From contig NZ_KB904125.1 of assembly GCF_000379945.1 (NCBI RefSeq), forward strand, positions 62,001 through 126,000: a DNA stretch of 64,000 bases, written 5' to 3'. This stretch comes from Porphyromonas macacae DSM 20710 = JCM 13914 (GTDB taxonomy: Bacteria > Bacteroidota > Bacteroidia > Bacteroidales > Porphyromonadaceae). Of this stretch, positions 32,063-52,947 are shown piece by piece. Below the pieces are notes generated by a model, which did not search any database, had not been told where the DNA came from, and saw only the letters and a list, made by a program, of their open reading frames with translations. The translations under genes and the position numbers were made by a program. Position 1 is the first letter of the stretch; each line of letters opens with the position of its first letter.

Positions 32063-33580
32063 TTACATCTCAATGATTTGATCGAAACGATTCCATCCGG
32101 GTGCAGCTTTGTAAGCCTGTTTGCTACCACGGGGAACACGGAGTGTGATTTTCGACATATCCTGGCCGTAAGTGAAAGATCCGGCTTTGGGAGGAACCGG
32201 ATTCAAAGAGACTATTTCTCGCAAGCTTGAGCAGTCTACAAAAGTTCCGGAGCCTATTCTTTTTACATTTCTGCCGAAAGTTACCTTTTTTACTCTTCCT
32301 GCATAGCGGAGGAGCTCTCCTTCAATGTCTGTCACGCTGTCGGGTATGGTTAATTCTTCTACATTGCAGAAAAGGAATGCAGCTTGTCTGGTTATTCTGA
32401 CGGTGTTGGGGATAGATACCTCTGTTATCCCTTTCACGGCAGAAAAAGCGCCATAGTCGATTTCTTCGACACCGTGCGGTATGGAATACTGCTTGTTGCT
32501 GTTATTTGCTTTTGGGCAGGCAATGAGTTTTTTCATATCTTTTGAAAAAAGAACACCGTTAAGAACGGTGAAAAACGGATTATTATCAGCTACCCTGATT
32601 TTTTTCAATGAATAGGTATCCGCAATAAAGCCCTTGCCTGTCTTGGAAACACTGCCTCCGATCATTATCTCTTCCAAACCGAGAGCAGAAACGAATGCAA
32701 ACTTTCCGATCGATTGAACGCTGTTGGGTATATCGATCTTCTTTAAATCTTCAGCCCTTTCAAAAGCCCTGTCTCCTATCTCGACAAGCGTACCGGGGAG
32801 TATCACTTCGGAGAGATCGCTTCCATGAAAAGCAGAAGGAGCAATATGGGTTACACCTTCCGGCACTACGTATTTACCGGTTCTCTTTGCAGGGAAAAGA
32901 ACGAGGGTCTTTTTGTCTTTGGAAAATAAAACTCCGTCAACTAATAAATAATGATTGTTCTGACCCGAAAGAATGATTTTCTTCAAATCATAACTCCTTA
33001 TGGCTCCTTCCATTTTAGATACATTCTTCGAAATCGTAAGCTCTTGCAGAGAAAAACACCAGGTATTGAAAGGCTTCAATGTGGTGACACGGTTGCCGAG
33101 AATAAGTTTTTTTACACCGGCTCTATGTTCGGAACTGCTAACAACCTTTACTTTGGCCAGATTGCAGTCGTTATTCATATCCACAACGGTTTCTTTCCCC
33201 GGCCAGTCAAAAAGAGTTGCCCCATCATCACTGATTTTATAAGATGATTTCGGATAACCGCTGTCTGCTTTTGCAAAAGCGACTGTAACATTCAGCGTTT
33301 TGCTCTCTTTCATTTTAATACGGTACTCCGGTGTACTCTGATTGACAATGGAATCGTTCAGAGTCCAGTAGCAAACCGTATAATTGTTTTCGGGAAAGGC
33401 TTTGAAAACAATCTCTTTGTCATTTGCTACGGGAGATCCCGGGGAAATAATGGCTCCGTCTACTGTGGCACCGACTGTTCCTCCGCCGTTTTCTACACTG
33501 AAAGAAACGACACCGCAAGCCGATAGAAAACCCGCGGTCAACATGCAGAATAAAAATTGTTGTAGTTTTTTTGTTTTCAT
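32063..33580 (-). CDS. BspA-like leucine-rich-repeat lipoprotein
   Basis: 505 aa with lipobox LSAC near residue 22. Residues about 28-105 resemble the small beta-grasp repeat seen in Listeria-Bacteroides surface proteins (GGGTVGATVDG..., KAFPENNYTVCYWTLN). The rest consists of TpLRR/LRR_5 repeats with the pattern SLxxIxIPxSVxxIGxxAF, for example LKKIDIPNSVQSIGKFAF and VEELTIPDSVTDI, closing with a VPRGSKQAYKAAPGW motif usual at the end of such proteins. BspA-like proteins bind host matrix or mediate coaggregation. It is convergent with the iron operon and has its own promoter. Confidence 0.9.
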   Translation of the reverse strand: MKTKKLQQFLFCMLTAGFLSACGVVSFSVENGGGTVGATVDGAIISPGSPVANDKEIVFKAFPENNYTVCYWTLNDSIVNQSTPEYRIKMKESKTLNVTVAFAKADSGYPKSSYKISDDGATLFDWPGKETVVDMNNDCNLAKVKVVSSSEHRAGVKKLILGNRVTTLKPFNTWCFSLQELTISKNVSKMEGAIRSYDLKKIILSGQNNHYLLVDGVLFSKDKKTLVLFPAKRTGKYVVPEGVTHIAPSAFHGSDLSEVILPGTLVEIGDRAFERAEDLKKIDIPNSVQSIGKFAFVSALGLEEIMIGGSVSKTGKGFIADTYSLKKIRVADNNPFFTVLNGVLFSKDMKKLIACPKANNSNKQYSIPHGVEEIDYGAFSAVKGITEVSIPNTVRITRQAAFLFCNVEELTIPDSVTDIEGELLRYAGRVKKVTFGRNVKRIGSGTFVDCSSLREIVSLNPVPPKAGSFTYGQDMSKITLRVPRGSKQAYKAAPGWNRFDQIIEM

Positions 33581-33855: not shown

Positions 33856-34506
33856 ATGATATACGGATATATTAGAGTAAGTAGCGATAAACAGACAGTA
33901 GAGAATCAACGCTTTGAGATTACTAACTTCTGCGAAAGACAAAAGCTCGTGATTGACGATTGGATAGAGGAAACCATCAGTGGCACCAAGAATTATAACA
34001 AAAGACAGCTTGGTCGCCTCTTAAAGAAGATTGGCAAAGGTGATATTATCATCTGTAGCGAACTCTCCCGGCTCGGTCGCAACCTCTTTATGATTATGGA
34101 AATCCTCAACATTTGTATGACGAAGGAGTGTCGTGTGTGGACAATCAAAGACAACTATCGTCTTGGTGATGATATCCAGAGCAAAGTTCTCGCCTTTGCC
34201 TTCGGTCTCTCAGCTGAGATTGAGCGCAATCTCATCAGTCAACGGACAAGGGAGGCCTTGGCACGTTTGAAATCTGAAGGGAAACCCATTGGACGTGGTG
34301 CAGGAAAGCGTAATAATAACCTTAATGCGACTTGTGTTGCTAGACATCAATACATATTGAAACAACTAAAATTAGGCATAAGCATACCAATAATCGCAAA
34401 AAGAATAAAGGTAGCAAGGGGTACTTTGTACCGTTATCTTGCTTATACAGGCATACGGCAACCAACAAAATCATACAATGGCAGGTGGACACGAGGAATC
34501 TATTAG
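33856..34506 (+). CDS. Serine recombinase (DNA invertase, Mpi/Hin-like)
   Basis: 216 aa from ATG 33856; the longer frame from 33802 adds an unconserved lead. The resolvase domain starts MIYGYIRVSSDKQ, with the catalytic serine at position 9, and continues with LSRLGRNLFMIMEIL and AEIERNLISQRTREAL (the long E helix). The C-terminus has a helix-turn-helix GISIPIIAKRIKVARGTLYRYL. Size and domain order are those of small invertases that flip DNA between inverted sites. Its stop codon is 4 bp from a 17-bp inverted-repeat copy bounding a 1-kb segment with methyltransferase C-termini, so it most likely drives inversion of that segment. Confidence 0.93.
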   Translation: MIYGYIRVSSDKQTVENQRFEITNFCERQKLVIDDWIEETISGTKNYNKRQLGRLLKKIGKGDIIICSELSRLGRNLFMIMEILNICMTKECRVWTIKDNYRLGDDIQSKVLAFAFGLSAEIERNLISQRTREALARLKSEGKPIGRGAGKRNNNLNATCVARHQYILKQLKLGISIPIIAKRIKVARGTLYRYLAYTGIRQPTKSYNGRWTRGIY

Positions 34507-34510
34507 TAGG

Positions 34511-34527
34511 GTCCACTTTTTGAAGAC
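34511..34527 (+). repeat. Left inverted repeat of the invertible segment
   Basis: GTCCACTTTTTGAAGAC, exact inverse of 35507-35523. Sequence on both sides differs between the two copies, so identity ends sharply. The 17-mer has partial internal dyad symmetry (GTC..C.....G..GAC), as serine-recombinase sites do. Confidence 0.9.
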
Positions 34528-34558
34528 TGACCCAAAAGCTCGTTACCAAGGATACACG

Positions 34559-34578
34559 TTCTATTTTAGAGAGGGATT
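34559..34578 (+). repeat. Second inverted repeat pair, left copy
   Basis: TTCTATTTTAGAGAGGGATT (20 bp), exact inverse of 35438-35457, also in frame in both cassettes (FYFREG). One mismatch is followed by further identity. It encodes a conserved protein motif, so the identity could reflect constraint or recent exchange. Confidence 0.75.
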
Positions 34579-35025
34579 GTGTTGGAGTGACATAAATACT
34601 ACTTTTTTGAAGTGTAGGAAAAAACAGAAAAGTATCCATGACGTGAAGAGTATGAGTATATTTTGCATTACTACATTTGTGCCAGAGGAATATATCCTTG
34701 CTCTCATAAATTCTACATTTATTAGTCACTATGTGGATAATTTTGTAAACAACACCCAAACATTTCAAATCAATGATGCTCGTCAATTACCCATTATTGT
34801 GCCAACTGATGTAGAAGTAAATTCTGCCTTGACTTTTGTTTCCGATGCTATATCCATTAAAAAGAACAAAGAAAATGAAGCAAGGCTACAAACTATACAA
34901 AAGATGGTTGATAAATTTGTTGAGAGGTTATATCATCTATGAGGATGGGGCTATAGCTATAAAAGGTTTACTTCTTCAGATAAAAAACAGACTTATCCAA
35001 TAGTGATAATTTAAACAATATCGGG

Positions 35026-35067
35026 ATGGAGATTGACAAGATTATTGAACAATTATATCTTGTATAA
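35026..35067 (+). pseudogene. Possible remnant of a third methyltransferase C-terminus
   Basis: The short plus-strand frame reads MEIDKIIEQLYLV and a stop, much like the ends of such methyltransferases (MVLNLYKI and MVDKFVERLYHL here). It is open back to 34984 and overlaps the stop of the expressed gene on the other strand. Too short for certainty. Confidence 0.3.
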
Positions 35068-38000
35068 ATTGAGAACCATGCTGTCAAGTTCCCTCTGAAG
35101 ATAAGATAACTTTTCTTCTGCTTGGTTACTATCCATAGCACAAGAAAATAGTGCCTTCTTTACTAACACAGACTCACTTGCAATTTTCTTTATCACGTCA
35201 AAAAAATAGCTATCAGGAATTATTATTGGAAGCTGTCTTGCGTCATTAATCTGGAAATGGGAAGTATTATTGATAAAGTTATCAACGTATAAGCTAATAA
35301 ACTCTGTATTTATCAAACTAACAAAATACCAATCAGGAATTTTTGTCATTGTAAAGAGGCTCATACTCAAAACATCGAACACACCATTTGACTTGATACG
35401 AGCTTTTAAATATGTAGAGTTTACATCTATCCAACAAAATCCCTCTCTAAAATAGAATTGTGGGTTTCTTACAACAGGCATACCCTCACCTTTTTTTCCT
35501 GAGTTTGTCTTCAAAAAGTGGACGTTCTCTTTAGACCAGGCTATGGCAAACGGAGTTTCAAGATACCATCTATTACCATCTTTATCTCCCTTATCGTAAG
35601 GAACATAGAATTTTTTAGAAGTATCTATACCATTTTCTTTCTCATCATCAGTTAGTTCTTCGACATTAGCAAGCTCATCATCTTCGATAATTTTATAGAT
35701 ATAACCTTGTCCAAAGATATCACGACCATATTGCTCTTTTATAGAATCAAACAAATCGGCAATTTCATGTTCTGAAAGAGTATTTAGAAAGTCTTTCTCA
35801 CTTTCAAAACCTTCTATTTGTGGCACTTTCACTTTCTTTTTCTTGATAGCTTCCGCTAACTTTTTCGGCCTCGACTCTATAATATTTTTTGCCCACTTTG
35901 TAGACCGACGCACAGCAACATATTTACCATTGTTTGCAGTAGCAAGTCCTTGACCACCTTCCGTTAGACAGCCTAATAATGCTATGTCACCTGGTTTTAA
36001 GTTTGCCCTATACGTTTCAAGTTCAGCTTTGTTCTGAGATATTTTTTTTGAGGTTTCTATCTTACTCCACCATTTATTATATAGTTCTTTGACCTTTTCG
36101 CCATAAAGTTCATAGATCCTGAGGTTTAGACTTGTAGGCTTAAAGATGATAGAGTTTTGAGTGTTTGTGTATACATTTTGTTCTATTGGGTCAAAAGAAA
36201 TCGGGTTTAAGAGATCTTTTGTTCCATCTAAAAACTTTATTTTGTGCTCCTTGGATATAGGATGTTTTATAACTTGAATAATACAAGTGTCAACCATTAC
36301 GGCCTCAAAAGGATTGGCTGTATCAAATATGTAGTTGATTTGATTTCCTAAAATCAAATCACGCATATTTTTTTTAGTCTGTGTGGTCCAAAACGTTTTG
36401 GGAATTATATATGAAAGAGAACCTCTATTCTTTAATAATGACATACCCTTGAATGTAAACAAATTGTAGGTATCATCGGAGAACCCGAATTCTGCTTCAT
36501 ATTTCTTTTTGTCTTCCACCGTTACACCCTTAGTAGAAATATATGGCGGATTACCAATTACGATGTCGAAGCCATCAGTAACACCGAACATCCATTCCGG
36601 GTCGAAAAATGGGCTTACGCTATTTTGATCATAGGGGTTCCATGCCACTAACTGTTTTGCATCTTCTGGTGCAAAGTTGTCGTCATCCGAAAGCAGTTTA
36701 GCCAGCTTCTCACGCAACGCCTGATCTTTTTCTCTCAAACGGTGCTTGGCTGAAGCAGACTTTGCAGAAAAGTGTTTATGGCGTATCTCTGCCAATTCAT
36801 TTTTTGTTGGCTCAATCTCTGGATTCTCAAACAAATCTTTCTGAGAAGGGTTCTTTTTCTTTGCTATCAGAGAATTGGCTGAAACGAACTTAGTTTCAAG
36901 ATTAGGCAACGTTGGGATACCGAAGTTTGGTTTCGATGCGTCCTTCTCGCAATCACATATCAATGAGATAAAGAAACGCAACTTTGTGATCTGTGCTGCA
37001 ATACTCTGTATGTCGCTTCCGTAAAGACAATTCTCTATAACCGAAAGTTTTAAATCATAAATGTGTTCATTTGGCGATATACGTTCAAGGATGTCGATCA
37101 TTCTGTTCAACAATCCCATAGGGAATGCGCCAGATCCGCAAGCTGGATCAAGTATTTTTACAGCTTTCAATTTGTCTGCTATCTTTTGATACTCATCCTT
37201 TTTTGTCTTGTCAAAAGAGAAGTCTTTGCTGAACAGCGATCGGACGAATGCGTCATCGCCCAGATAGGCAATAAGGCTTTCGTCAACCATATAGTTGACT
37301 ATCTCACGTGGCGTATAGAATGAGCCGCTTTGATTACGTGCCGTTTCTTTGGTTTCCGGGTTGTAAGCACCCAGCAGATTCTCGAACACCTTACCCAGCA
37401 GTTCGGGGTCGAGAGCCACCTGCTGTTCCTCCGGTGAATTTTCTTCAATGGTAAAGTTGTAGCGGCTCAGAATCGAAATCAACCCCTTCTCCGGTTCAAA
37501 GAAGAGATTGTTTGGAACAATAGCACGGTGTTTGAATGTTCCATCCGAGAAGCGACCGTCATTGCGGCTGAAGCCATCGAAATTGTAGCATTGTTCTACT
37601 CCGTCAATATATCGTGTCTTATCCAAACACTCAAACAAGCCGCCATTCAAGAATGGGATTTCGCCAAACAGCCGGATAACCTCTTGTTCGCTGATTGAGA
37701 ATAATTCAGCATAGCGATACAACGTTTTTACATCCCGTTTACTTGAAGTGGCAAACTTACGGGTATTACCATCCTCATCTTCGATGGCACGATTAAGTGT
37801 GCCAAAGAATAGGTTTTGCAGGATGGCATTATAGTAATTGCCCTCGGTCGTACTATATGGGTCGAAGTTTTTTAGAATCTTTGTCAGGTACTCAACCTCA
37901 AAGATGGTGTCCGGTACCAGATTCTTTTGTTTGATAAACCACACGAACATGATACGGGTAATCATGCGGATGACTTTTGTTTCGATGTCATCGCGATCAT

Positions 38001-38622
38001 CATCCCTTGTCGTTGTATTATTGGGGAAGGTAATATTTGACGAAGGCTCAATAGCCCATTGATACCACCCGAACAAATCTTTGTAGAATTGTTTGGTAAG
38101 AGCTTCCACAGAAAACGCGGCAGTAATGTCGCTTAACGTCTGTTTACTGTCGCGTAAAATCTTAAACTGCTCGATGGCGGTGCGACATCCACGTCCTTCA
38201 CCAAGAAGATAGGTGTAGCGCTTTGTGTCTGTTGAAGTTTTTTCGTATTCACCTTGTTTGTTGAAACCCCAAGTCTCGCTGACGTATGAGAATCGAAGCA
38301 CGCTTTCTTTCTTACGGTAACAGAACATAAATGCCCCGGCATGCCCCATGTTGCGCCAGTCGGTGGTGAGCATGTCGCGTATACCGCGGCGATTACGCTC
38401 TATATCCACATTCTCTGTTAATTCTACTTCATATACAGCGATAGACTCTCCATCGGTGAGTGAAATCTTTCCGAGGTAAAAAGCCTGCTTTGCCAATCGA
38501 CTACTGACGCGGACATCTGATGGTTGATTCCAGAAGTTAACCTTGTTGAGGAAAATATCGTGAATAAGTTGCTGCCACGCTTCACGATTATATCTTGATT
38601 CTATGACTTCTTTGTAATTCAT
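35053..38622 (-). CDS. Eco57I/PglX-like adenine DNA methyltransferase with invertible C-terminus
   Basis: 1189 aa. Motif I LDPACGSGAFP near residue 494 and the catalytic NPPY near residue 691 identify a gamma-type N6-adenine methyltransferase. The N-terminal 450 residues are those of large type IIG/BREX-like enzymes; no clear PD-(D/E)xK nuclease motif is seen. The C-terminal region from about residue 880, including GDIALLGCLTEGGQGL and FHFQINDARQLPI-like blocks, resembles the TaqI-type specificity region. From Val1034 on, the sequence lies in the invertible segment. The gene follows the helicase gene by 91 bp in one operon. Expected role: methylating self DNA and setting target specificity of a restriction or defence complex. 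Confidence 0.88.
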   Translation of the reverse strand: MNYKEVIESRYNREAWQQLIHDIFLNKVNFWNQPSDVRVSSRLAKQAFYLGKISLTDGESIAVYEVELTENVDIERNRRGIRDMLTTDWRNMGHAGAFMFCYRKKESVLRFSYVSETWGFNKQGEYEKTSTDTKRYTYLLGEGRGCRTAIEQFKILRDSKQTLSDITAAFSVEALTKQFYKDLFGWYQWAIEPSSNITFPNNTTTRDDDRDDIETKVIRMITRIMFVWFIKQKNLVPDTIFEVEYLTKILKNFDPYSTTEGNYYNAILQNLFFGTLNRAIEDEDGNTRKFATSSKRDVKTLYRYAELFSISEQEVIRLFGEIPFLNGGLFECLDKTRYIDGVEQCYNFDGFSRNDGRFSDGTFKHRAIVPNNLFFEPEKGLISILSRYNFTIEENSPEEQQVALDPELLGKVFENLLGAYNPETKETARNQSGSFYTPREIVNYMVDESLIAYLGDDAFVRSLFSKDFSFDKTKKDEYQKIADKLKAVKILDPACGSGAFPMGLLNRMIDILERISPNEHIYDLKLSVIENCLYGSDIQSIAAQITKLRFFISLICDCEKDASKPNFGIPTLPNLETKFVSANSLIAKKKNPSQKDLFENPEIEPTKNELAEIRHKHFSAKSASAKHRLREKDQALREKLAKLLSDDDNFAPEDAKQLVAWNPYDQNSVSPFFDPEWMFGVTDGFDIVIGNPPYISTKGVTVEDKKKYEAEFGFSDDTYNLFTFKGMSLLKNRGSLSYIIPKTFWTTQTKKNMRDLILGNQINYIFDTANPFEAVMVDTCIIQVIKHPISKEHKIKFLDGTKDLLNPISFDPIEQNVYTNTQNSIIFKPTSLNLRIYELYGEKVKELYNKWWSKIETSKKISQNKAELETYRANLKPGDIALLGCLTEGGQGLATANNGKYVAVRRSTKWAKNIIESRPKKLAEAIKKKKVKVPQIEGFESEKDFLNTLSEHEIADLFDSIKEQYGRDIFGQGYIYKIIEDDELANVEELTDDEKENGIDTSKKFYVPYDKGDKDGNRWYLETPFAIAWSKENVHFLKTNSGKKGEGMPVVRNPQFYFREGFCWIDVNSTYLKARIKSNGVFDVLSMSLFTMTKIPDWYFVSLINTEFISLYVDNFINNTSHFQINDARQLPIIIPDSYFFDVIKKIASESVLVKKALFSCAMDSNQAEEKLSYLQRELDSMVLNLYKI
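35438..35457 (-). repeat. Second inverted repeat pair, right copy
   Basis: Minus strand reads TTCTATTTTAGAGAGGGATT, identical to 34559-34578 on the plus strand. Confidence 0.75.
35507..35523 (-). repeat. Right inverted repeat of the invertible segment
   Basis: Minus strand reads GTCCACTTTTTGAAGAC, codons 1034-1039 of the methyltransferase. Confidence 0.9.
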
Positions 38623-38713: not shown

Positions 38714-41700
38714 TCAACGAAAACTTTCGGAAAGAATTATCTCAGCATCGGTTTCTTTCTCGTTGAGCAAAGCTTCCTCTGCCATATAATAAGGGGCATA
38801 TTTCTTTGCTATTTCAATAATCTCATGGAGAGCTTCATCATGAGTCATACGGGATTTTCCTCCGATACGGCGCAGGTCTTTTTGAATGCGTTGCAGACGT
38901 TTTGCAATATACGTGATGACACCTCGCTCCGCTAAAGACTTTAGCTGGGCTACTTTTAGATACAAGTCGCTGTCATCAATCTCTCGCATAAAACTGGTAA
39001 GCAAGTTAATAGCCGTACTTACCTGTGCGCCCATGTTGCTTTGCTCCTCTTTGGATGTCTCCTGTGACAGTATTTCTGTTTCACGAATGGTATGGAACTT
39101 CATCAAAGCCTTTTCTACATGTTGATGGTGCTGTGTTATGCGTTCCACAGGTTTCTCATCCGGGCTTGCTTTGAAATATTTAAGTGCTTCAATTACTGAT
39201 ATTTCCTCTGCATTTTCAGAAATAAGGAAAAACACTTTCCGGAAATTAGTTTTGAGGAAGACCAACGTGTCGTCAGAGAGAGTTACACCATCGACTACTC
39301 GTGGCTCACGACCTGTACGACTACGCAGTGATAACTTCGCTATGCGGTTGTACTCTCGACGGTTCGTTTGATAAAAAGAGCGAAGTTCCTCATAGTACGG
39401 TATCTCTTGATTGACGTCTTCCTTCTGCTCTTTCAATGCTTCATCGAAGAGCTTGCTCAGATTGCGGTCAAGAATCTCATGTTGTGAATATATCTGATTG
39501 TCTTCGCCAAATGTGGAGTGGAATGTCTGTATCTTACTTATGGCAATTTGGTTGAGATTGATTTCCCGGTTTCCCTCACGTGAAGGGTAGAACACATAGT
39601 TGTATATGTGCTTTGATACAGAGCCGATGCGATTCACACGTCCGATTCGCTGCATTAGGCGAGTCGAGTTCCATGGAGTATCATAGTTGACAATTACGTT
39701 GGAACGGTGTAGGTTGACCCCTTCTGCCAGCACGTCCGTTGTCAAAATGATATTGTAGTTGTTGAGCTTCGTCTTATAATTAGCATCGAAATTCTCGCGG
39801 ATAATCTTGAACTGCTGACTACGATTGCCTGATGAGATTACCAAAACATCCGGGCGGTTGATTCTGCGCTGTAAATAGTTTACGGTATCGACCGATTCGG
39901 AGAATACAACAAGCTTCTGCTCAGGATTCCGGTCGACCTTGAACAGTTCGTGCTTTAGGAGTTCCTTAAACTTGGCAAACTTTGAATCGTCATCATCCGA
40001 AATACCCTGCCAATCACTACACATCTTTTCAAGAATAGCTTGGTCGACTTCCAGCATCTCAATGAACTCAGGCTGGAAATCATCTGCTTTGAACACTGCA
40101 TTCTTGGGATTGTCCTTTGCTTTTTGATTCAAACGTTCTTCAATTTCTTCCTCGGTCATCGTCGCCATCATCGTATTGACATCAAGGTCGGGGGCAATGA
40201 ATATCTTATTGTTGGTGAACATGTCAAGCATATTCTGGTTGGCTTGACGGAAATTATTGATAGAGACCTGAAACGCAAAGAAACTGCTCTCCAAGCGTTT
40301 CACCAGTCCATTCTTGCGTATTCCTGCCAAATTGCGGCTTATGAGTTCCGCATTATCATACAAACCGTTGGAAACTTCTGGTTTCAGGTAAGCAATGGCT
40401 TGGTAGCGTGCATAGGTCAAATCCTTGTCGAGAGTATGCATAGCCTGCTCAAAGAGGTTCGCTAAATGTTCATTGAGTTCATACCTGCTTTCTACGGGAC
40501 GTTCGACTTTCGGAAATCCGTTTACATCCTTATTGTAGCGTGAAACGCTTTCTATGTCGGTTCGAGTACGACGGACCGTTAGAGGCTTGATTACACGATC
40601 ACGTACTTTTTCTGCCAGTCGTTTGAAATCGCTCATGTCTGACTCGGGATTGTTACGCAACTTCTTAAACTCTACAATCAAAGGAGAAAAGAATGCGGTT
40701 AAGTTGCTTACCCCATCGATGGTACAGTGACGTGCGTCTTGGAACAGCAGTATTTGATTATAAAGGTCTGCCGGTGTGTTGTTCATTGGCGTTGCCGAGA
40801 TGAGCATTACTTTTTTCTTGTAGCCGGGAATGTTGCCTGTTTCGATACGAGGCATCTTGCAAATTTCTTGCAGATACTCGAAGGCCGATGTAGTATGGCT
40901 GCGGAACTTATGAGCTTCGTCCACCAATATGAGGTCGTATTCATCGGCATTCCAGTAGTTGTAGTTGTCCTCGTCCAACACCTTTGACAAGCTTCCATTA
41001 CTGATGAAGTTGGCATATTTATCAATGCCGAAATCTTTGAAAGTGGTTTTCCAGTTCTGTTCAACAGCCGGTGGATATACCACAAGTATTTTAGTATTGT
41101 CACGGCCATTCTCTATCAAGAATTTCTTAGCAATCATGGTGGCAATAACCGTTTTCCCGAGACCGACCACATCTGCAAGGAAGAAACCATCATAGCGGAT
41201 AAGCTTTTGATAACCTTCAATGACCGCATCCATCTGATAGTCGTATTTGGTGTACCCCTCTGGCATATCGAATGGGGCTTCATTCTCCGTTTCCAATATG
41301 CGGTCAGAAAAATACTCCATAAGCATCTTAATATAAAGATCGTATGGAGAAACATCACCTTTCAAATATGTGCGGTCGATAGACATCTTTATATCATCGG
41401 CTGCAATCTCACAATTCTTAGCTTCTTCCCATAGGCTTTCAAACTCGTCTTTAGCGAATTGTACGTCTTCATGTTGAGTCATTTTCACATTAAACTCATA
41501 TTGACGTTCTTCGGTAATACCAAGACCATTGCCGGAAAGATTGCTTGAACCAGTGATGGCCATGCCCTGAGTGTATTGGTTAAAATCATCGGGGTATAGC
41601 ACATATATTTTGGCATGTATTTTCTTTGATGGATGAGCACGCAGCTCTAATTTACCATCGAGAAGGTCTTGAACCATCTGAAACATACCATCCTCGATTT

Positions 41701-42031
41701 CCTTCCTGTAACTGGAACTTTCAATATCCTTGCGTGTCAGATGCAGGCACTCCTGCTTAACATTGTCTTCTGCACCGAGGAACAATTTCCCTTGACGTGC
41801 AGCTTCTGCAATATACTTATCTACATCGATGCCTATAAGCACTCTGACCTTGTTGAGACTGTCAAGAAACGGACGAAGCGAAAAATATCCGGATGCCCTT
41901 AGAAAACCAACAACCGCATCAAGATTTTGGATTTGCGGATTATGCTGTAGCACACCCTCAAATTCTTTCATCAACGTGTTCCCGTTTCTATTTGTGAAGA
42001 TGTGGGAATTAGTCTGTTGAACAGTGCTCAT
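38714..42031 (-). CDS. PLD-domain SNF2-family helicase
   Basis: 1105 aa. Residues about 1-215 form a phospholipase-D-type nuclease domain with one HKD-like motif (IHAKIYVLYPDDF, then ITGSSNLSGNGLG). Residues about 270-560 are the SNF2 helicase core: LADVVGLGKTVIATMIA (Walker A near 292) and LILVDEAHKFRS (DEAH near 368). Residues about 700-830 hold the second RecA domain with LTTDVLAEGVNLH and RLMQRIGRVNRIG. The rest is charged and helical. It probably translocates on DNA and cuts it through the PLD domain, with the downstream methyltransferase giving specificity. First gene of the operon, with a promoter box 31 bp upstream. Confidence 0.88.
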   Translation of the reverse strand: MSTVQQTNSHIFTNRNGNTLMKEFEGVLQHNPQIQNLDAVVGFLRASGYFSLRPFLDSLNKVRVLIGIDVDKYIAEAARQGKLFLGAEDNVKQECLHLTRKDIESSSYRKEIEDGMFQMVQDLLDGKLELRAHPSKKIHAKIYVLYPDDFNQYTQGMAITGSSNLSGNGLGITEERQYEFNVKMTQHEDVQFAKDEFESLWEEAKNCEIAADDIKMSIDRTYLKGDVSPYDLYIKMLMEYFSDRILETENEAPFDMPEGYTKYDYQMDAVIEGYQKLIRYDGFFLADVVGLGKTVIATMIAKKFLIENGRDNTKILVVYPPAVEQNWKTTFKDFGIDKYANFISNGSLSKVLDEDNYNYWNADEYDLILVDEAHKFRSHTTSAFEYLQEICKMPRIETGNIPGYKKKVMLISATPMNNTPADLYNQILLFQDARHCTIDGVSNLTAFFSPLIVEFKKLRNNPESDMSDFKRLAEKVRDRVIKPLTVRRTRTDIESVSRYNKDVNGFPKVERPVESRYELNEHLANLFEQAMHTLDKDLTYARYQAIAYLKPEVSNGLYDNAELISRNLAGIRKNGLVKRLESSFFAFQVSINNFRQANQNMLDMFTNNKIFIAPDLDVNTMMATMTEEEIEERLNQKAKDNPKNAVFKADDFQPEFIEMLEVDQAILEKMCSDWQGISDDDDSKFAKFKELLKHELFKVDRNPEQKLVVFSESVDTVNYLQRRINRPDVLVISSGNRSQQFKIIRENFDANYKTKLNNYNIILTTDVLAEGVNLHRSNVIVNYDTPWNSTRLMQRIGRVNRIGSVSKHIYNYVFYPSREGNREINLNQIAISKIQTFHSTFGEDNQIYSQHEILDRNLSKLFDEALKEQKEDVNQEIPYYEELRSFYQTNRREYNRIAKLSLRSRTGREPRVVDGVTLSDDTLVFLKTNFRKVFFLISENAEEISVIEALKYFKASPDEKPVERITQHHQHVEKALMKFHTIRETEILSQETSKEEQSNMGAQVSTAINLLTSFMREIDDSDLYLKVAQLKSLAERGVITYIAKRLQRIQKDLRRIGGKSRMTHDEALHEIIEIAKKYAPYYMAEEALLNEKETDAEIILSESFR

Positions 42032-47920: not shown

Positions 47921-49219
47921 TTAACGGGTATAGAATTCGATTAGCCGTTTCAATGCCAGTTGACAGGCAGGACAGAAGGCCGGAGCTTCGTTGGTGCGCA
48001 TACGGCAGTCGTAACTGCAGCGATAGAACCCTTTGCTGCTGTATGCTGCTCCTTCATATAAACCGGTTTCGTACTTGGCTGAATCTTTGACCGGAGTGGG
48101 GCGAGGAGTGTCTTTTTTGATAAGTTCGCTCCATTTCTTACCGTCAAAATCGATCAGGGTGGTCACATTCTGTTCCCAAGGCTCCTTATTCCGCATATAA
48201 ACATCGGTCATTACATCGTTATCGTAGAAGTATTCGTCCGCCAATCCGCCGAAGCTATGGCCGAATTCATGAACCACTACAGGGCGAAAACCTGCGTGAT
48301 GAGCCGTGGTCAGGGTAAAACTGTTGAAGATGCCGCCACCGCCATAGACATCGGTGTTTGCCAGCATAATGATATGTTCGTATGCCACTCCCGTAAGAGC
48401 ATCATGGATTGCTTTCAGCCTTCGGCTGGTGAGATAACGGTCACTGTAAAAAGTGTCGAAATGCGAACCGAAAGCCGTCTCTTTCCAATTCTTCATGCGC
48501 GGTACGCTGACTCCCGATTGCACAGAAGGAGTGAAAACGGCGATAATATTGAACCGGTCTGCCATGGAAGCAAAAGGTTCGTGCGAAAGCAAAGCTTCCT
48601 TCGTAATGCGGGCGTCGGTCAGAAATGTTTCCTTTTCAGCTGCCGTATAGCCTTCTGACATGACGACAACGTCGATCTTTTCCTTTGGACTGCCGGAATA
48701 AAGCAGTTGTTCGACCTGCGGTGCACGGGTTGCTTTTTTATGATGGATAAGAATATCGGCAGGGTCGACACGATGTTTGTAAACGGCAATGTCGGCCATG
48801 GTCATATCTCGAAGACTGACGGTTATGATAACGGATTTTTTGGGATAAGGCAATAAAAAGACGTTTTCAAAACTTTTGGCAGTTTTTGTTGCTTCATCCG
48901 TACTGAGCTATTCTTGAAAGAGAGAACTGAACGATGTTTTGTAGATAATCCGGCCGGTGGTTTCATCCTGCATCACGATAGAGCCCATACCGGCCAAAGC
49001 CAAAGAATCCAGATGGTGGCGACGTCCGTACCAGCCTTCGGTGCGGTTCAACTCGTCCAGGTATACCGACACCTGTTTACTGTTGCCTCCGGCAAAGATA
49101 TAATCTACACGGAGCGTGCTGTCTGCAAAGAATGCGTTAAAATCGATCTCTTTCTGCTGAGCCCATGAAAGCAGGGGAAAGAGCGAGACGATCAGGAATA
49201 AAATACGTTTCAGTTTCAT
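47921..49219 (-). pseudogene. M64-family (IgA-peptidase-like) metallopeptidase, interrupted by an in-frame TAG
   Basis: The reading frame from ATG 49219 runs to 47921 (about 432 codons) with one TAG at 48910-48908. Before it are a signal peptide (MKLKRILFLIVSLFPLLSWA) and the M64 N-terminal domain ending YKTSFSSLFQE. After it, in the same frame, LSTDEATKTAKSFENVFLLPYP continues without loss, then the catalytic HEFGHSFGGLADEYF. Relatives have a Trp after the FQE, so TGG to TAG is the simplest change. Either a fresh nonsense mutation, a sequencing error or, less likely, readthrough. The ATG overlaps the hemG stop by 4 bp. Confidence 0.8.
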
Positions 49220-50610: not shown

Positions 50611-52878
50611 TTATGATTTTGGGGTTTTACCCATAAAAAATTCCAGTCTGCTGCCGGGCTTTATGGCGGTGTGAGGCAGATACGGTTCTTTCAGCGTCCG
50701 GCCGTTCAGAAGAACCTTTTGCACATATTTATCGGCACGACTGTTGCCATGCACCTTTATCATAAAATCGCCTCCCGGTATCTTGATGACAGCTTCATCC
50801 ACGATCGGCCGCCCGAGGTAATACACCGGTTTGCCGGGACAAACCTGATAAAAACCCATAGCACTCATAACATACCAGGCCGACATCTGCCCGCAGTCTT
50901 CGTTGCCGATTATCCCATCCGGAGCCGGCCGATAGAAGTGATACATGATGCTGTCCAGCATCAACTGTGCTTTGTGGGCCTGTCCGGTGTGATTGTACAG
51001 GTAGGCGATATGGTGGCTCGGCTCGTTGCCATGCACATACTGTCCGATAAGGCCTGTAATATCGCCTGCGGGCTGTCCCTCAAGACGGGAAGACGTGTAA
51101 AAAAGGGTATCGAGGTTTGCTTCCAGTACATCTGCGCCACCCATTAGTGCGATGAAGCCTTCCATATCGTGAGGGGCATAAAAACTCCATTGGTAAGCAT
51201 TGCCTTCTGTGTAATCGTTACCCGTATGATTGGAGAAGCGAGGGTAGAACGGTGTCTTAAACGTACCGTCTGCCATAACGGGACGCATAAGATTGGTTTC
51301 CTTGTCCCAATATCTGCGATAATACAGTCCTCGGCGATCGTAAGCCTCTTTTACCGAGTCCGAACCGGCTGCTTCAGCAATACGGGCGATACACCAGTCG
51401 TCGTATGCCATTTCCACACCCCAGGAAACCGATTGTTCTAGACTGTCGCAAGGCACGAAGCCTGATGTTTCCTTGAAATAAGGATGGCGGGTAATCAGAT
51501 CATGTTCGCGTGTGCCTCTGAACTTGACATCCAAGTCGGCTCGGAAAATGGAAGAGCGTACGGCGGCTTCCGTCCAGTGCTTCAGATCATCTTCTGCTGT
51601 GGTAATGCCTTTGGTAACCAGATCCGCCATAATGCTAACGGCATGATAACCCGGCATACAGCCCGTATAGTTGGAGGCTAAAGGCCAGCGGGGCAGTATC
51701 GAACCGTTGTCATAGTCGGCAACGAGACTGCGTCCGTATCGCAAAGCGCGCTGCGGATCGGTTATCGTCAGCATGGGATGCAGGGCACGGTAAGTATCCC
51801 AGATGGAAAATACCGTGTAATACCCATCCGCAGGGTTACCCTTATGGATCTGTTTATCGATACCTCGATATTCTCCGTTGATATCCTGATAATTGTATGG
51901 AGCGATATTCATGTGATACAAAGCCGTATAAAAATTTTTCAGTACGGTAGTATCGGCCGTGCGTATACGGATATTGGAGAGCGCGTTGCGCCAGATTTCT
52001 CGACTCTCGGCAACAACTTTATCGAAATCCCAGTGAGGCAACTCGGCATACATATTCTCCCGGGCATTTTCGGGGTTTACCGGTGAAAGACCGACTTTAA
52101 CCAGCAGAGATTTTTCCGATGCGGGAAAATAGAGATAAACTTTTATATCGGATGAATCGGTTATGTTCACCGGCAGACTTTCGACGGAGCGCCGGTGTCC
52201 GTTGATCCAGAGAGCGATGCTGTCGGCCGGCAGGCTTGTTTCCATGTGATAACTCATCCGGTGGTTTTCAGCCCAACCTTTTGTATAGTATGTTCCGCTG
52301 AGAGAGCCGTTTGTGAGAATGTTCAGATCGTTTTTTACCACGCTGTGTCCCCAGTTGGGCTGGAGTATATGTGCCAAATCCAGCATGAGGCGAAGCGGTC
52401 GATTCTTCTCTGCCGTATAACGGTGCATACCTACACGCTCCGTCGTTGTCAATTCGGCTTTTATGCCGAAGTTTTTAAGTTGTACGGCATAGTAGCCGGG
52501 CCGGGCTTTTTCGGTGGATTTATCCATCAGCGCTACCGGTTTTAGTGAATCGACTCCGGTAAACGGCAGTATGGCCACATCGCCCAAATCTCCGATGCCC
52601 GTGCCGCTTAAGTGCGTATGTGAAAAGGCATACAAAAGCGTATCGGGATAGTGGTAACCGCTGCTGGCTTCCCAACCCAGCAAATGGGTGTCGGGGCTTA
52701 GCTGCACCATGCCGTTGGGAAGTGTGGGGCCGGGAAAAGTATGACCGTGGGCTCCCGTTCCTACCATGGGATCGACGAAAATCAAAGGATCGAAAGACTC
52801 TTTTTCAGCTTTGTTGCATCCCCAAAATAGAAGGATTGCAAAGGCCAGAACAGGGAGAACTGTTTTATTCGGTTTCAT
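50611..52878 (-). CDS. GH92-family alpha-mannosidase lipoprotein
   Basis: 755 aa from ATG 52878 (MKPNKTVLPVLAFAILLFWGC), which gives a lipobox WGC; an in-frame upstream start would bury it. DPMVGTGAHGHTFPGPTLPNGMVQLSPDT opens the GH92 N-terminal beta domain; the (alpha/alpha)6 part contains GNEDCGQMSAWYVMSAMGFYQVCPG, the calcium and catalytic region near residue 675. GH92 enzymes release alpha-mannose from N-glycans, mostly alpha-1,2. In a peptide-eating oral or gut anaerobe this would trim host glycoproteins. No PUL partners lie beside it. Confidence 0.95.
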   Translation of the reverse strand: MKPNKTVLPVLAFAILLFWGCNKAEKESFDPLIFVDPMVGTGAHGHTFPGPTLPNGMVQLSPDTHLLGWEASSGYHYPDTLLYAFSHTHLSGTGIGDLGDVAILPFTGVDSLKPVALMDKSTEKARPGYYAVQLKNFGIKAELTTTERVGMHRYTAEKNRPLRLMLDLAHILQPNWGHSVVKNDLNILTNGSLSGTYYTKGWAENHRMSYHMETSLPADSIALWINGHRRSVESLPVNITDSSDIKVYLYFPASEKSLLVKVGLSPVNPENARENMYAELPHWDFDKVVAESREIWRNALSNIRIRTADTTVLKNFYTALYHMNIAPYNYQDINGEYRGIDKQIHKGNPADGYYTVFSIWDTYRALHPMLTITDPQRALRYGRSLVADYDNGSILPRWPLASNYTGCMPGYHAVSIMADLVTKGITTAEDDLKHWTEAAVRSSIFRADLDVKFRGTREHDLITRHPYFKETSGFVPCDSLEQSVSWGVEMAYDDWCIARIAEAAGSDSVKEAYDRRGLYYRRYWDKETNLMRPVMADGTFKTPFYPRFSNHTGNDYTEGNAYQWSFYAPHDMEGFIALMGGADVLEANLDTLFYTSSRLEGQPAGDITGLIGQYVHGNEPSHHIAYLYNHTGQAHKAQLMLDSIMYHFYRPAPDGIIGNEDCGQMSAWYVMSAMGFYQVCPGKPVYYLGRPIVDEAVIKIPGGDFMIKVHGNSRADKYVQKVLLNGRTLKEPYLPHTAIKPGSRLEFFMGKTPKS

Positions 52879-52947
52879 TGATAAGAAATAATGAGATACA
52901 AAAGGTGAAGAGCATTCCACCGGTAGTAAGAATGCCGGTAAGAAGAG

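What the first reader, a model, noticed from the sequence alone, without database searches (positions are those of the whole stretch)
33856..38622. Self-contained specificity switch: a serine invertase flips the C-terminus of an adenine methyltransferase
A perfect 17-bp inverted repeat (34511-34527, 35507-35523) bounds 1,013 bp holding the expressed C-terminus of the methyltransferase on one strand and an intact, promoterless homologous C-terminus on the other. Both repeat copies are codons for VHFLKT in the same frame, so inversion would exchange the last ~150 residues cleanly. A serine recombinase ends 4 bp outside the left repeat. Both orientations would give full-length protein, so this would change specificity rather than turn the gene on and off. 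Such shuffling is well known for type I HsdS subunits; for a large Eco57I/PglX-like enzyme paired with a helicase it is much less familiar.
Basis: partly seen in the sequence, partly recalled or inferred. Interest (0 to 1): 0.92.

Follow-up and report, generated by a model that had tools for sequence, protein, structure and literature searches.

The report
Invertible specificity switch in DNA methyltransferase
A bacterial DNA-marking enzyme carries a flippable gene end, with its own DNA-flipping enzyme next to it, so the cell can probably change which DNA sequences it marks; related loci suggest that two nested exchanges mix and match parts of the recognised sequence.

Summary
A perfect 17-bp inverted repeat (IR1, 34511-34527 / 35507-35523), found only at these two places in the 2.2-Mb genome, encodes VHFLKT in both arms. 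It bounds the C-terminus of an Eco57I/PglX-like methyltransferase and an intact silent copy, 4 bp from an Mpi-family serine recombinase. A PLD-SNF2 translocase gene precedes the methyltransferase: a split Type IIG-like R-M system. Comparative data support a switch. IR1 arms are identical in 8 of 9 loci (one base off in the ninth) while differing between loci. The recombinase's DNA-binding domain tracks the site class. Silent parts are under purifying selection. Sister ("type B") loci occur in both orientations, also between close relatives. In type A relatives the 'head' between IR1 and IR2 stays with its position (13 of 14; 11 of 11), while tails occur in both positions. The likely device is a nested two-repeat switch with four in-frame proteins. 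Published methylomes of two type-B carriers show unexplained related motifs (GGNYAG, CCNYAG, GGYGAB) that look like head x tail combinations. No reads were available; flipping in this strain is inferred.

The parts
33856..34506 (+). serine recombinase, 216 aa, Mpi-family invertase; the only match to itself in the genome
   Evidence: NCBIfam NF009949, 324 bits against cutoff 272; Pfam Resolvase and HTH_7; single copy
34511..34527 (+). IR1 left arm, putative recombinase site (codons VHFLKT of the silent cassette)
   Evidence: exact inverted match to 35507-35523; two copies in genome
34529..34558 (+). silent 'D head' DPKARYQGYT between IR1 and IR2
   Evidence: D-type head in 11 of 11 recombinase-side cassettes; pN/pS 0.055
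34559..34578 (+). IR2 left arm (inner repeat, codons FYFREG)
   Evidence: 20-bp perfect inverted match to 35438-35457
34511..34942 (+). silent C-terminal cassette (IR1, D head, IR2, tail), open frame
   Evidence: 43% identical to the expressed C-terminus; PglX-family PADLOC and NCBIfam matches
35053..35523 (-). expressed C-terminal cassette of the methyltransferase (IR1, N head, IR2, tail)
   Evidence: residues 1034-1189
35438..35457 (-). IR2 right arm
35458..35505 (-). expressed 'N head' NSGKKGEGMPVVRNPQ
   Evidence: NSGKKG head in 13 of 14 expressed cassettes
35507..35523 (-). IR1 right arm
35053..38622 (-). Eco57I/PglX-like adenine methyltransferase with recognition domain, 1189 aa (DPACGSG 492, NPPY 691)
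   Evidence: Pfam PF07669; PADLOC REase_MTase_IIG and PglX; motifs; fold matches CamA, BrxX, MmeI
38714..42031 (-). PLD-domain SNF2-type helicase/translocase, 1105 aa, upstream gene in the same direction, 91-bp gap
   Evidence: Pfam PLDc_2, SNF2-rel_dom, Helicase_C; HAK 139, GLGKT 290, DEAH 371

Best explanation
A self-contained, specificity-switching Type IIG-like restriction-modification module. The PLD-SNF2 protein is the probable nuclease/translocase. The PglX/MmeI-like protein methylates adenine and carries the recognition domain for both. The adjacent Mpi-family serine recombinase inverts the DNA between the two IR1 sites, which replaces the end of the recognition domain (head plus tail) with the silent one, in frame. 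An inner repeat, IR2, lets tails alone be exchanged, by the same recombinase or by another recombination route. Two nested exchanges give four full-length enzymes (N+tail A now; D+tail B; N+tail B; D+tail A), each expected to have a different target. Shown: anatomy, frames, uniqueness of IR1, comparative signatures, exchanged cassettes between close relatives of the sister type. Inferred: flipping in this strain, target changes, the agent acting at IR2.
For: IR1 arms agree within loci: 1 mismatch in 153 positions over 9 type A loci (window included) against a permuted mean of 27.5; 1 of 200,000 permutations as low. In five relatives with no recombinase or silent copy found in the fetched DNA (L083, L130, L131, L133, L136) the site differs at 3-9 of 15 non-core positions; L028, also without both, keeps it. 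Recombinase DNA-binding domain: 60% within A, 83% within B, 32% A to B, while catalytic domains are 85% A to B. D heads pN/pS 0.055; silent tails 0.31-0.36 against expressed 0.28-0.33. Type B heads in both orientations, 9 to 5 of 14 loci with unlike heads. Close pairs with exchanged cassettes: L064/L065 (cleanest), also L023/L024 and L045/L094, both with complications. Tails in both positions; 4 of 5 headless middle cassettes begin at an IR2 copy. All four window states in frame. The swapped segment aligns with PglX from about residue 750 to 843, which includes T802 and S838, altered in a PglX mutant with changed recognition.
Against: No reads; the assembly shows one orientation. In type A the N head sits at the methyltransferase in 13 of 14 loci, and in 11 of 11 with both cassettes seen. 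If IR1 flipped as in type B this would be unlikely (P 0.008; 0.0005 for 1:1). So IR1 inversion in type A may be rare, biased or lost. IR2 arms agree less well within loci (17 mismatches against mean 24.2; 490 of 100,000 permutations), and the middle cassettes of L043 and L071 show no IR2 copy of 14 bp or more. Of 8 close pairs compared, 3 showed only same-place matches, including L057/L058, which have unlike heads. The swapped stretch was modelled with pLDDT under 50 at 1034-1093, so its DNA contact is not shown. L045 has an out-of-frame junction that may be an assembly artefact. The direct orientation evidence is from type B, not type A.
Confidence: 0.78

Rival explanations
1. Inversion happens only at IR1: a two-state switch. 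IR2 is merely a conserved coding motif shared by homologous cassettes.
For: IR1 covaries between arms, the recombinase DNA-binding domain tracks the IR1 class, and IR2 encodes a motif YF[RK]EG that PglX also has. IR2 arms agree only moderately within loci.
Against: Tails are found in both positions while heads are not. Four of five headless middle cassettes begin at an IR2 copy. Type B loci show heads and tails in all four combinations.
Confidence: 0.2
2. Exchange occurs only at IR2 (homologous recombination or gene conversion), and IR1 is a fossil or a regulatory site in type A.
For: Heads are position-locked in 13 of 14 expressed and 11 of 11 recombinase-side cassettes.
Against: D heads are under strong purifying selection although silent in the 11 loci where both sides are seen (pN/pS 0.055). 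IR1 arms stay identical. Relatives with a D-like head in the expressed place exist (L136, L130, L054), so an expressed D head is plausible. Type B heads do change place.
Confidence: 0.2
3. A decayed duplication: the silent cassette is a remnant and the recombinase acts elsewhere.
For: One orientation in the assembly; no reads.
Against: The silent frame is intact; silent tails evolve like expressed ones. No other exact IR1 site exists in the genome. The same arrangement recurs with one or two silent cassettes in relatives.
Confidence: 0.04

Closest known systems
Pin17FIII of Prevotella intermedia 17F and its relative in Rikenella microfusus DSM 15922 (PMC5608340; passages read)
   Same: Methyltransferase gene, a second gene on the opposite strand 23 bp beyond it, and an upstream SNF2 helicase; R. 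microfusus DSM 15922 is our type B locus L060, with a silent cassette and an Mpi-type recombinase.
   Different: Type B recognition domain and site in L060, not the window's type A. The passages read explain the extra motifs by gene combination or helicase interaction, not by inversion. I did not have the 17F sequence.
AchA6III-like Type IIG systems (PMC4752239, passages)
   Same: MmeI-like methyltransferase/TRD without PD-ExK plus an adjacent fused PLD endonuclease/translocase.
   Different: No inversion described in the passages read ('inversion' does not occur in the main text).
Gene-altering programmed inversions in Type II R-M systems (Milman et al. 2023, NAR 51:553; abstract recalled, paper not held; reference seen)
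   Same: Silent inverted copy, inverted repeats, change of a Type II R-M gene (as recalled).
   Different: I could not check whether these loci, the nested repeats or the Mpi-type recombinase are in it.
HsdS shufflons of Type I systems (e.g. pneumococcal, PMC4948785 and PMC7096588: search listings and abstract starts only)
   Same: Inverted repeats exchange recognition domains.
   Different: There the specificity subunit is separate and the pneumococcal recombinase PsrA is a tyrosine recombinase; here recognition is part of the methyltransferase, with a serine recombinase.
Mpi of Bacteroides fragilis (PMC4747536, passages)
   Same: Family of the recombinase.
   Different: [quoted passage not shown] here one exact site pair lies beside the gene.

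Membership tests
Mpi-family serine invertase (NF009949) | score above curated cutoff, resolvase catalytic domain | tested here: met
   324 bits against 272; R7, S9, R72, R75 invariant in 15 aligned proteins
Mpi-family serine invertase (NF009949) | 'master' role at many distant sites | tested here: inconclusive
   exact 17-mer only at the two IR1 arms in the genome; degenerate sites were not searched
AchA6III-like Type IIG R-M | gamma-class adenine methyltransferase with recognition domain and no fused nuclease | tested here: met
   Eco57I/N6_Mtase/MmeI_Mtase and no nuclease family at E 0.001 in Pfam; NPPY and DPACGSG
AchA6III-like Type IIG R-M | adjacent fused PLD endonuclease/translocase | tested here: met
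   PLDc_2 plus SNF2-rel_dom and Helicase_C in one protein
AchA6III-like Type IIG R-M | methylation and restriction activity | not testable with these tools
   needs SMRT sequencing and phage assays
BREX (PglX) | PglX model above cutoff | tested here: not met
   best 116.8 bits against 500
BREX (PglX) | companion brx/pgl genes nearby | tested here: not met
   no BREX hit among 10 neighbouring ORFs scanned
DISARM | DrmD above cutoff with drmA/B/C | tested here: not met
   149.8 bits against 610; no partner genes among the 10 ORFs scanned
Type I hsdS shufflon | separate specificity subunit gene | tested here: not met
   recognition segment is the C-terminus of the methyltransferase
Programmed gene-altering inversion of a Type II R-M gene | inverted silent partial copy, inverted repeats in frame, recombinase adjacent | tested here: met
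Programmed gene-altering inversion of a Type II R-M gene | both orientations in one population | not testable with these tools
   no reads available; only between-genome evidence

The most novel reading that the evidence does not exclude
A two-axis specificity switch in a single-chain enzyme. Nested inverted repeats exchange two sub-parts of one recognition domain independently, so that the head sets the 5' part of the target (in type B, H1 reading GG and H2 reading CC) and the tail sets the rest, giving four or more targets from two cassettes. This would explain the unassigned motifs GGNYAG, CCNYAG, GGYGAB in P. intermedia 17F and CCGACY, CCRGAG, SCCAAB in R. microfusus, whose two heads are both H2.
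Probability: 0.45. Interest if true: 0.87.

Novelty: new variant of a known kind. Interest (0 to 1): 0.74.

Why it matters
It extends specificity shuffling from Type I HsdS subunits to a single-chain methyltransferase with its own serine recombinase, in a module found in many oral, gut and rumen Bacteroidales genomes. If nested, it creates combinatorial half-targets. That gives a concrete and testable explanation for unassigned methylation motifs in two sequenced methylomes, and for possible phase-variable methylation and phage defence in these bacteria.

Tried and rejected
A one-off chance repeat: rejected. BREX or DISARM membership: rejected on score cutoffs and missing partners among the ORFs scanned. 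Plasmid and phage records as a source of the same locus in both orientations: 16 plasmid records, all under 60% identity; no phage record; 4 viral contigs, of which L094 was useful and L093 was the same sequence as L046. More type A loci: 5 of 393, 3 of 395 and 3 of 399 genomes matched at E 1e-40. The first two include the own genome; the three are, by their coordinates, the genomes of L010, L056 and L068, so nothing new came from it. Breaks of contigs at the site: 23 of 47 type B loci end within 800 bp after the site, against 6 of 47 contigs beginning in the 5 kb before the gene, with L050, whose contig begins inside the gene, not counted. I use this only as weak support, because long near-identical repeats also break assemblies, and the settings of those assemblies were not checked. 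L012/L120 break inside IR1 but not at its end, so they were not used for orientation. The first head regular expression for type B found nothing and was replaced. The structure model did not resolve the swapped stretch, so no claim on DNA contacts is made; the fold list does not exclude families that it does not show. Left out of the type B state table: L014, L024 and L060, whose frames are short or broken on one side (heads H1/H2, H2/H2, H2/H2). Left out of the type A head count: L011 (contig ends before) and L083 (no recognisable site). In one search the site pattern was not found in L132 and L134, so they are not in the comparison. One search puts two tail kinds into one class T1 by single linkage; I split it by eye (IDVNSTYLKAR against DINTTFLKC). 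The type B state table and the contig distances were entered by hand; the count of 47 was repeated.
Full report
Observation. GTCCACTTTTTGAAGAC at 34511-34527 is the reverse complement of 35507-35523, it is found at only these two places in the 2.21-Mb genome, and a 17-bp inverted repeat arose in 1 of 1000 shuffles of the region. Each arm encodes VHFLKT in frame. The 1,013-bp segment holds residues 1034-1189 of the methyltransferase on the minus strand and an intact silent homologue (43% identical) on the plus strand. The recombinase gene stops 4 bp outside.

Genes. The recombinase is of the Mpi invertase family (NF009949, 324 bits, cutoff 272) and is the only match to itself in the genome. The 1189-aa methyltransferase has Eco57I and N6_Mtase domains, DPACGSG at 492 and NPPY at 691; its model (mean pLDDT 68.6) matches CamA, BrxX/PglX and MmeI. 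The upstream 1105-aa protein combines a PLD domain with an SNF2-type helicase. This is the architecture that Blow et al. name for AchA6III: an MmeI-like methyltransferase/TRD with an adjacent fused PLD endonuclease/translocase (PMC4752239, passages). BREX and DISARM models are below their cutoffs, and no partner genes were found among the 10 neighbours scanned. In the genus sample 4 of 26 genomes, the own one included, had any match to the methyltransferase.

What is swapped. By sequence, residues 990-1127 align with residues 708-843 of Salmonella PglX (8c45). The invertible stretch therefore covers the second half of the PglX recognition domain (662-849), from about residue 750, and includes the positions T802 and S838 altered in a PglX mutant with changed recognition (PMC11341690, passages). 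My structure model is poor there (pLDDT under 50 at 1034-1093), so the contact with DNA is inferred.

Relatives. A scan of the collection of 84,980 species genomes gave 364 relatives, of which the best 80 were kept. Of these 80 loci 31 match the recombinase, and many others end before reaching it. Two architectures share the helicase and the methyltransferase core (type B up to 89% and 83% identical to the window) but differ in the recognition domain. Type A, like the window, was found in 15 of 80; a recognised type B site (S-x-F-V-Q-Q) in 47 of 80; 18 of 80 had neither, several of them cut short. Type A loci with the second cassette in view carry one or two silent ones. Of the 15, 8 match the recombinase in the same locus; for L012 and L071 it lies on an adjoining contig.

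IR1 is a recombination site. In 9 type A loci with both arms seen, window included, the arms are identical in 8 and differ by one base in L030, whereas between loci the bases at positions 5-6 vary: AC, AA, GT, GG, AT, AG, GT, GC, GG. The total of 1 mismatch in 153 compares with a permuted mean of 27.5 (1 of 200,000 permutations as low; without the two variant-site loci 86 of 200,000). A variable core that must agree between partners is what established knowledge of serine recombinases would predict (recalled). Five relatives in whose fetched DNA no recombinase or silent copy was found (L083, L130, L131, L133, L136) differ from the other 15 site positions at 3 to 9 places; L028, also without both in its fetched DNA, keeps the site. 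Recombinase catalytic domains are 85% identical between A and B, but DNA-binding domains only 32%, against 60% within A and 83% within B; the variant type A sites of L077 and L081 go with a different DNA-binding domain as well (32% to canonical A, catalytic domains 72%). This ties the recombinase to IR1.

IR2 and the heads. The window has an inner repeat of 20 bp (28 bp with one mismatch) at codons FYFREG. Between IR1 and IR2 lies a short head. At the methyltransferase it is NSGKKG... (N) in 13 of 14 loci, with L054, whose contig ends soon after, as the exception; at the recombinase side it is D-x-[KRN]-ARYQGY (D) in 11 of 11, two of these read from adjoining contigs. Tails do not respect position. 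The LCW-x-DINTTFLKC tail is expressed in L010, L043 and L071 but silent in the window, L012, L047, L056 and L068; a second kind is expressed in L068 and silent in L043, L044 and L121; a third is expressed in L047 and silent in L081; a fourth is expressed in L081 and silent in L030 and L077 (the first kind was split by eye from a larger class). One search lists five middle cassettes without a head (L012, L043, L047, L056, L068); four of them start at an inverted IR2 copy, that of L043 does not, and L071, whose middle cassette is on the same strand as the gene, shows none either. Tails have therefore most likely been exchanged at IR2. Arms of IR2 agree only moderately within loci (17 mismatches, mean 24.2, 490 of 100,000).

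Silent parts are used. D heads show pN/pS 0.055 over 11 sequences of 9 codons. Silent tails show 0.31-0.36, like expressed tails at 0.28-0.33 (synonymous changes are near saturation, so only the comparison counts). In the 12 residues before the silent cassettes no start codon is shared, so expression most simply comes from joining to the methyltransferase. D-like heads stand in the expressed place in L136, a Lactiplantibacillus plasmid, and L130; N heads in L131 and L133, all four without a recombinase or silent copy in the fetched DNA.

Type B shows the movement more directly. Two head alleles, DW[DN]INIYRGVLTG-like (H1) and DWDIQINYGIKTG (H2), occur with H1 at the methyltransferase in 9 and H2 in 5 of 14 loci with unlike heads; one further locus has H1 on both sides, and three (L014, L024, L060) were left out of the table. 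With tails a and b all four nested states exist: H1a/H2b in 5, H2b/H1a in 2, H1b/H2a in 2, H2a/H1b in 1, the last read from a contig that overlaps the methyltransferase contig by 55 bp. Between close relatives, the cleanest case is L064 and L065: they share 96.4% of the methyltransferase core, yet 252 bp of L064's expressed cassette, starting at the site and running to the contig end, match L065's silent cassette inverted at 95.6%, against 88.5% in place. In L024 the expressed 8444-8940 matches the silent cassette of L023 inverted (89.2%; cores 97.3% identical), but the rest of L024 is rearranged in a more complex way and no recombinase was found in it. L045 and L094 (98.2%) differ likewise, with an out-of-frame junction in L045 that may be an artefact. 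In all I compared 8 pairs: five show inverted cassette matches (also L027/L029 and L014/L017, at lower identity), three only matches in place (L057/L058, L050/L118, L015/L049). Contigs of L020, L034, L048 and L070 end within 28 bp of the site start; in G040 both flanks begin on the same 23 bp.

Published methylomes. In P. intermedia 17F the methyltransferase Pin17FIII lies beside Pin17FORF9595 on the opposite strand, below an SNF2 helicase. The cell shows GGNYAG, CCNYAG and GGYGAB; the cloned methyltransferase gives GGYGAB, the second gene alone nothing, and both together only GGYGAB. The relative in R. microfusus goes with CCGACY, CCRGAG and SCCAAB (PMC5608340, passages). R. microfusus DSM 15922 is our L060, with two H2 heads. 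The three 17F motifs read like {GG, CC} x {NYAG, YGAB}. That the head sets GG or CC is my inference; I did not have the 17F sequence, L060's methyltransferase-side frame is broken in the assembly, and two cassettes with one head would give two motifs, not three, unless the further inner repeats also exchange.

Mechanism. Most likely the recombinase inverts at IR1, and tails are also exchanged at IR2, giving four in-frame enzymes of 1189, 1176, 1182 and 1183 aa. Against a freely flipping IR1 in type A stands the locked head: with the type B share, 0 of 11 has probability 0.008. IR1 flipping in type A may be rare, regulated or selected against in what is sequenced. The agent at IR2 is unknown.

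Novelty. Inversion of Type II R-M genes as such has been predicted (Milman et al. 2023, recalled; not held). The listings of my ten paper searches, and the passages read in some of the papers, showed no description of this nested arrangement or of this recombinase-methyltransferase-translocase module as a switch; the library lacks most subscription journals. I rate it a new variant of a known kind.

Noticed in passing
L026:8605-9543: The 'complete' Bacteroides xylanisolvens XB1A record has a run of 939 N inside the type B region between site and recombinase.
   Followed up: no
L046:9979-10179: Porphyromonas canoris contig has two 100-bp copies in tandem next to the type B cassette, likely an assembly artefact of the invertible region.
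   Followed up: no
L077:10262-10840, L081:9345-9923: Variant type A loci in which the recombinase lies in the opposite orientation and both IR1 arms share a different sequence (GTCGGSTTTCTTAAAGC).
   Followed up: partly
L018:8958-8984/9726-9752, L022:8702-8762/9964-10024 and others: Type B loci have further inner repeats at RPILRGRDIKRY and WEDFxKPKI, suggesting more than two exchange points.
   Followed up: partly
L136:5212-8679: A Lactiplantibacillus plantarum plasmid carries a relative (SNF2 protein plus methyltransferase) with a D-type head and no silent copy found; a site-specific integrase gene lies about 1.1 kb downstream.
   Followed up: partly
L137:3721-10384: A Parabacteroides distasonis plasmid carries a related SNF2 plus methyltransferase pair followed, one gene on, by a TIR-domain gene.
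   Followed up: no
window 32063-33580: BspA-type leucine-rich-repeat protein next to the module.
   Followed up: no
window 47924-48853: Peptidase M64 (IgA peptidase family) protein near the module; GH92 glycosidase at 50614-52920.
   Followed up: no
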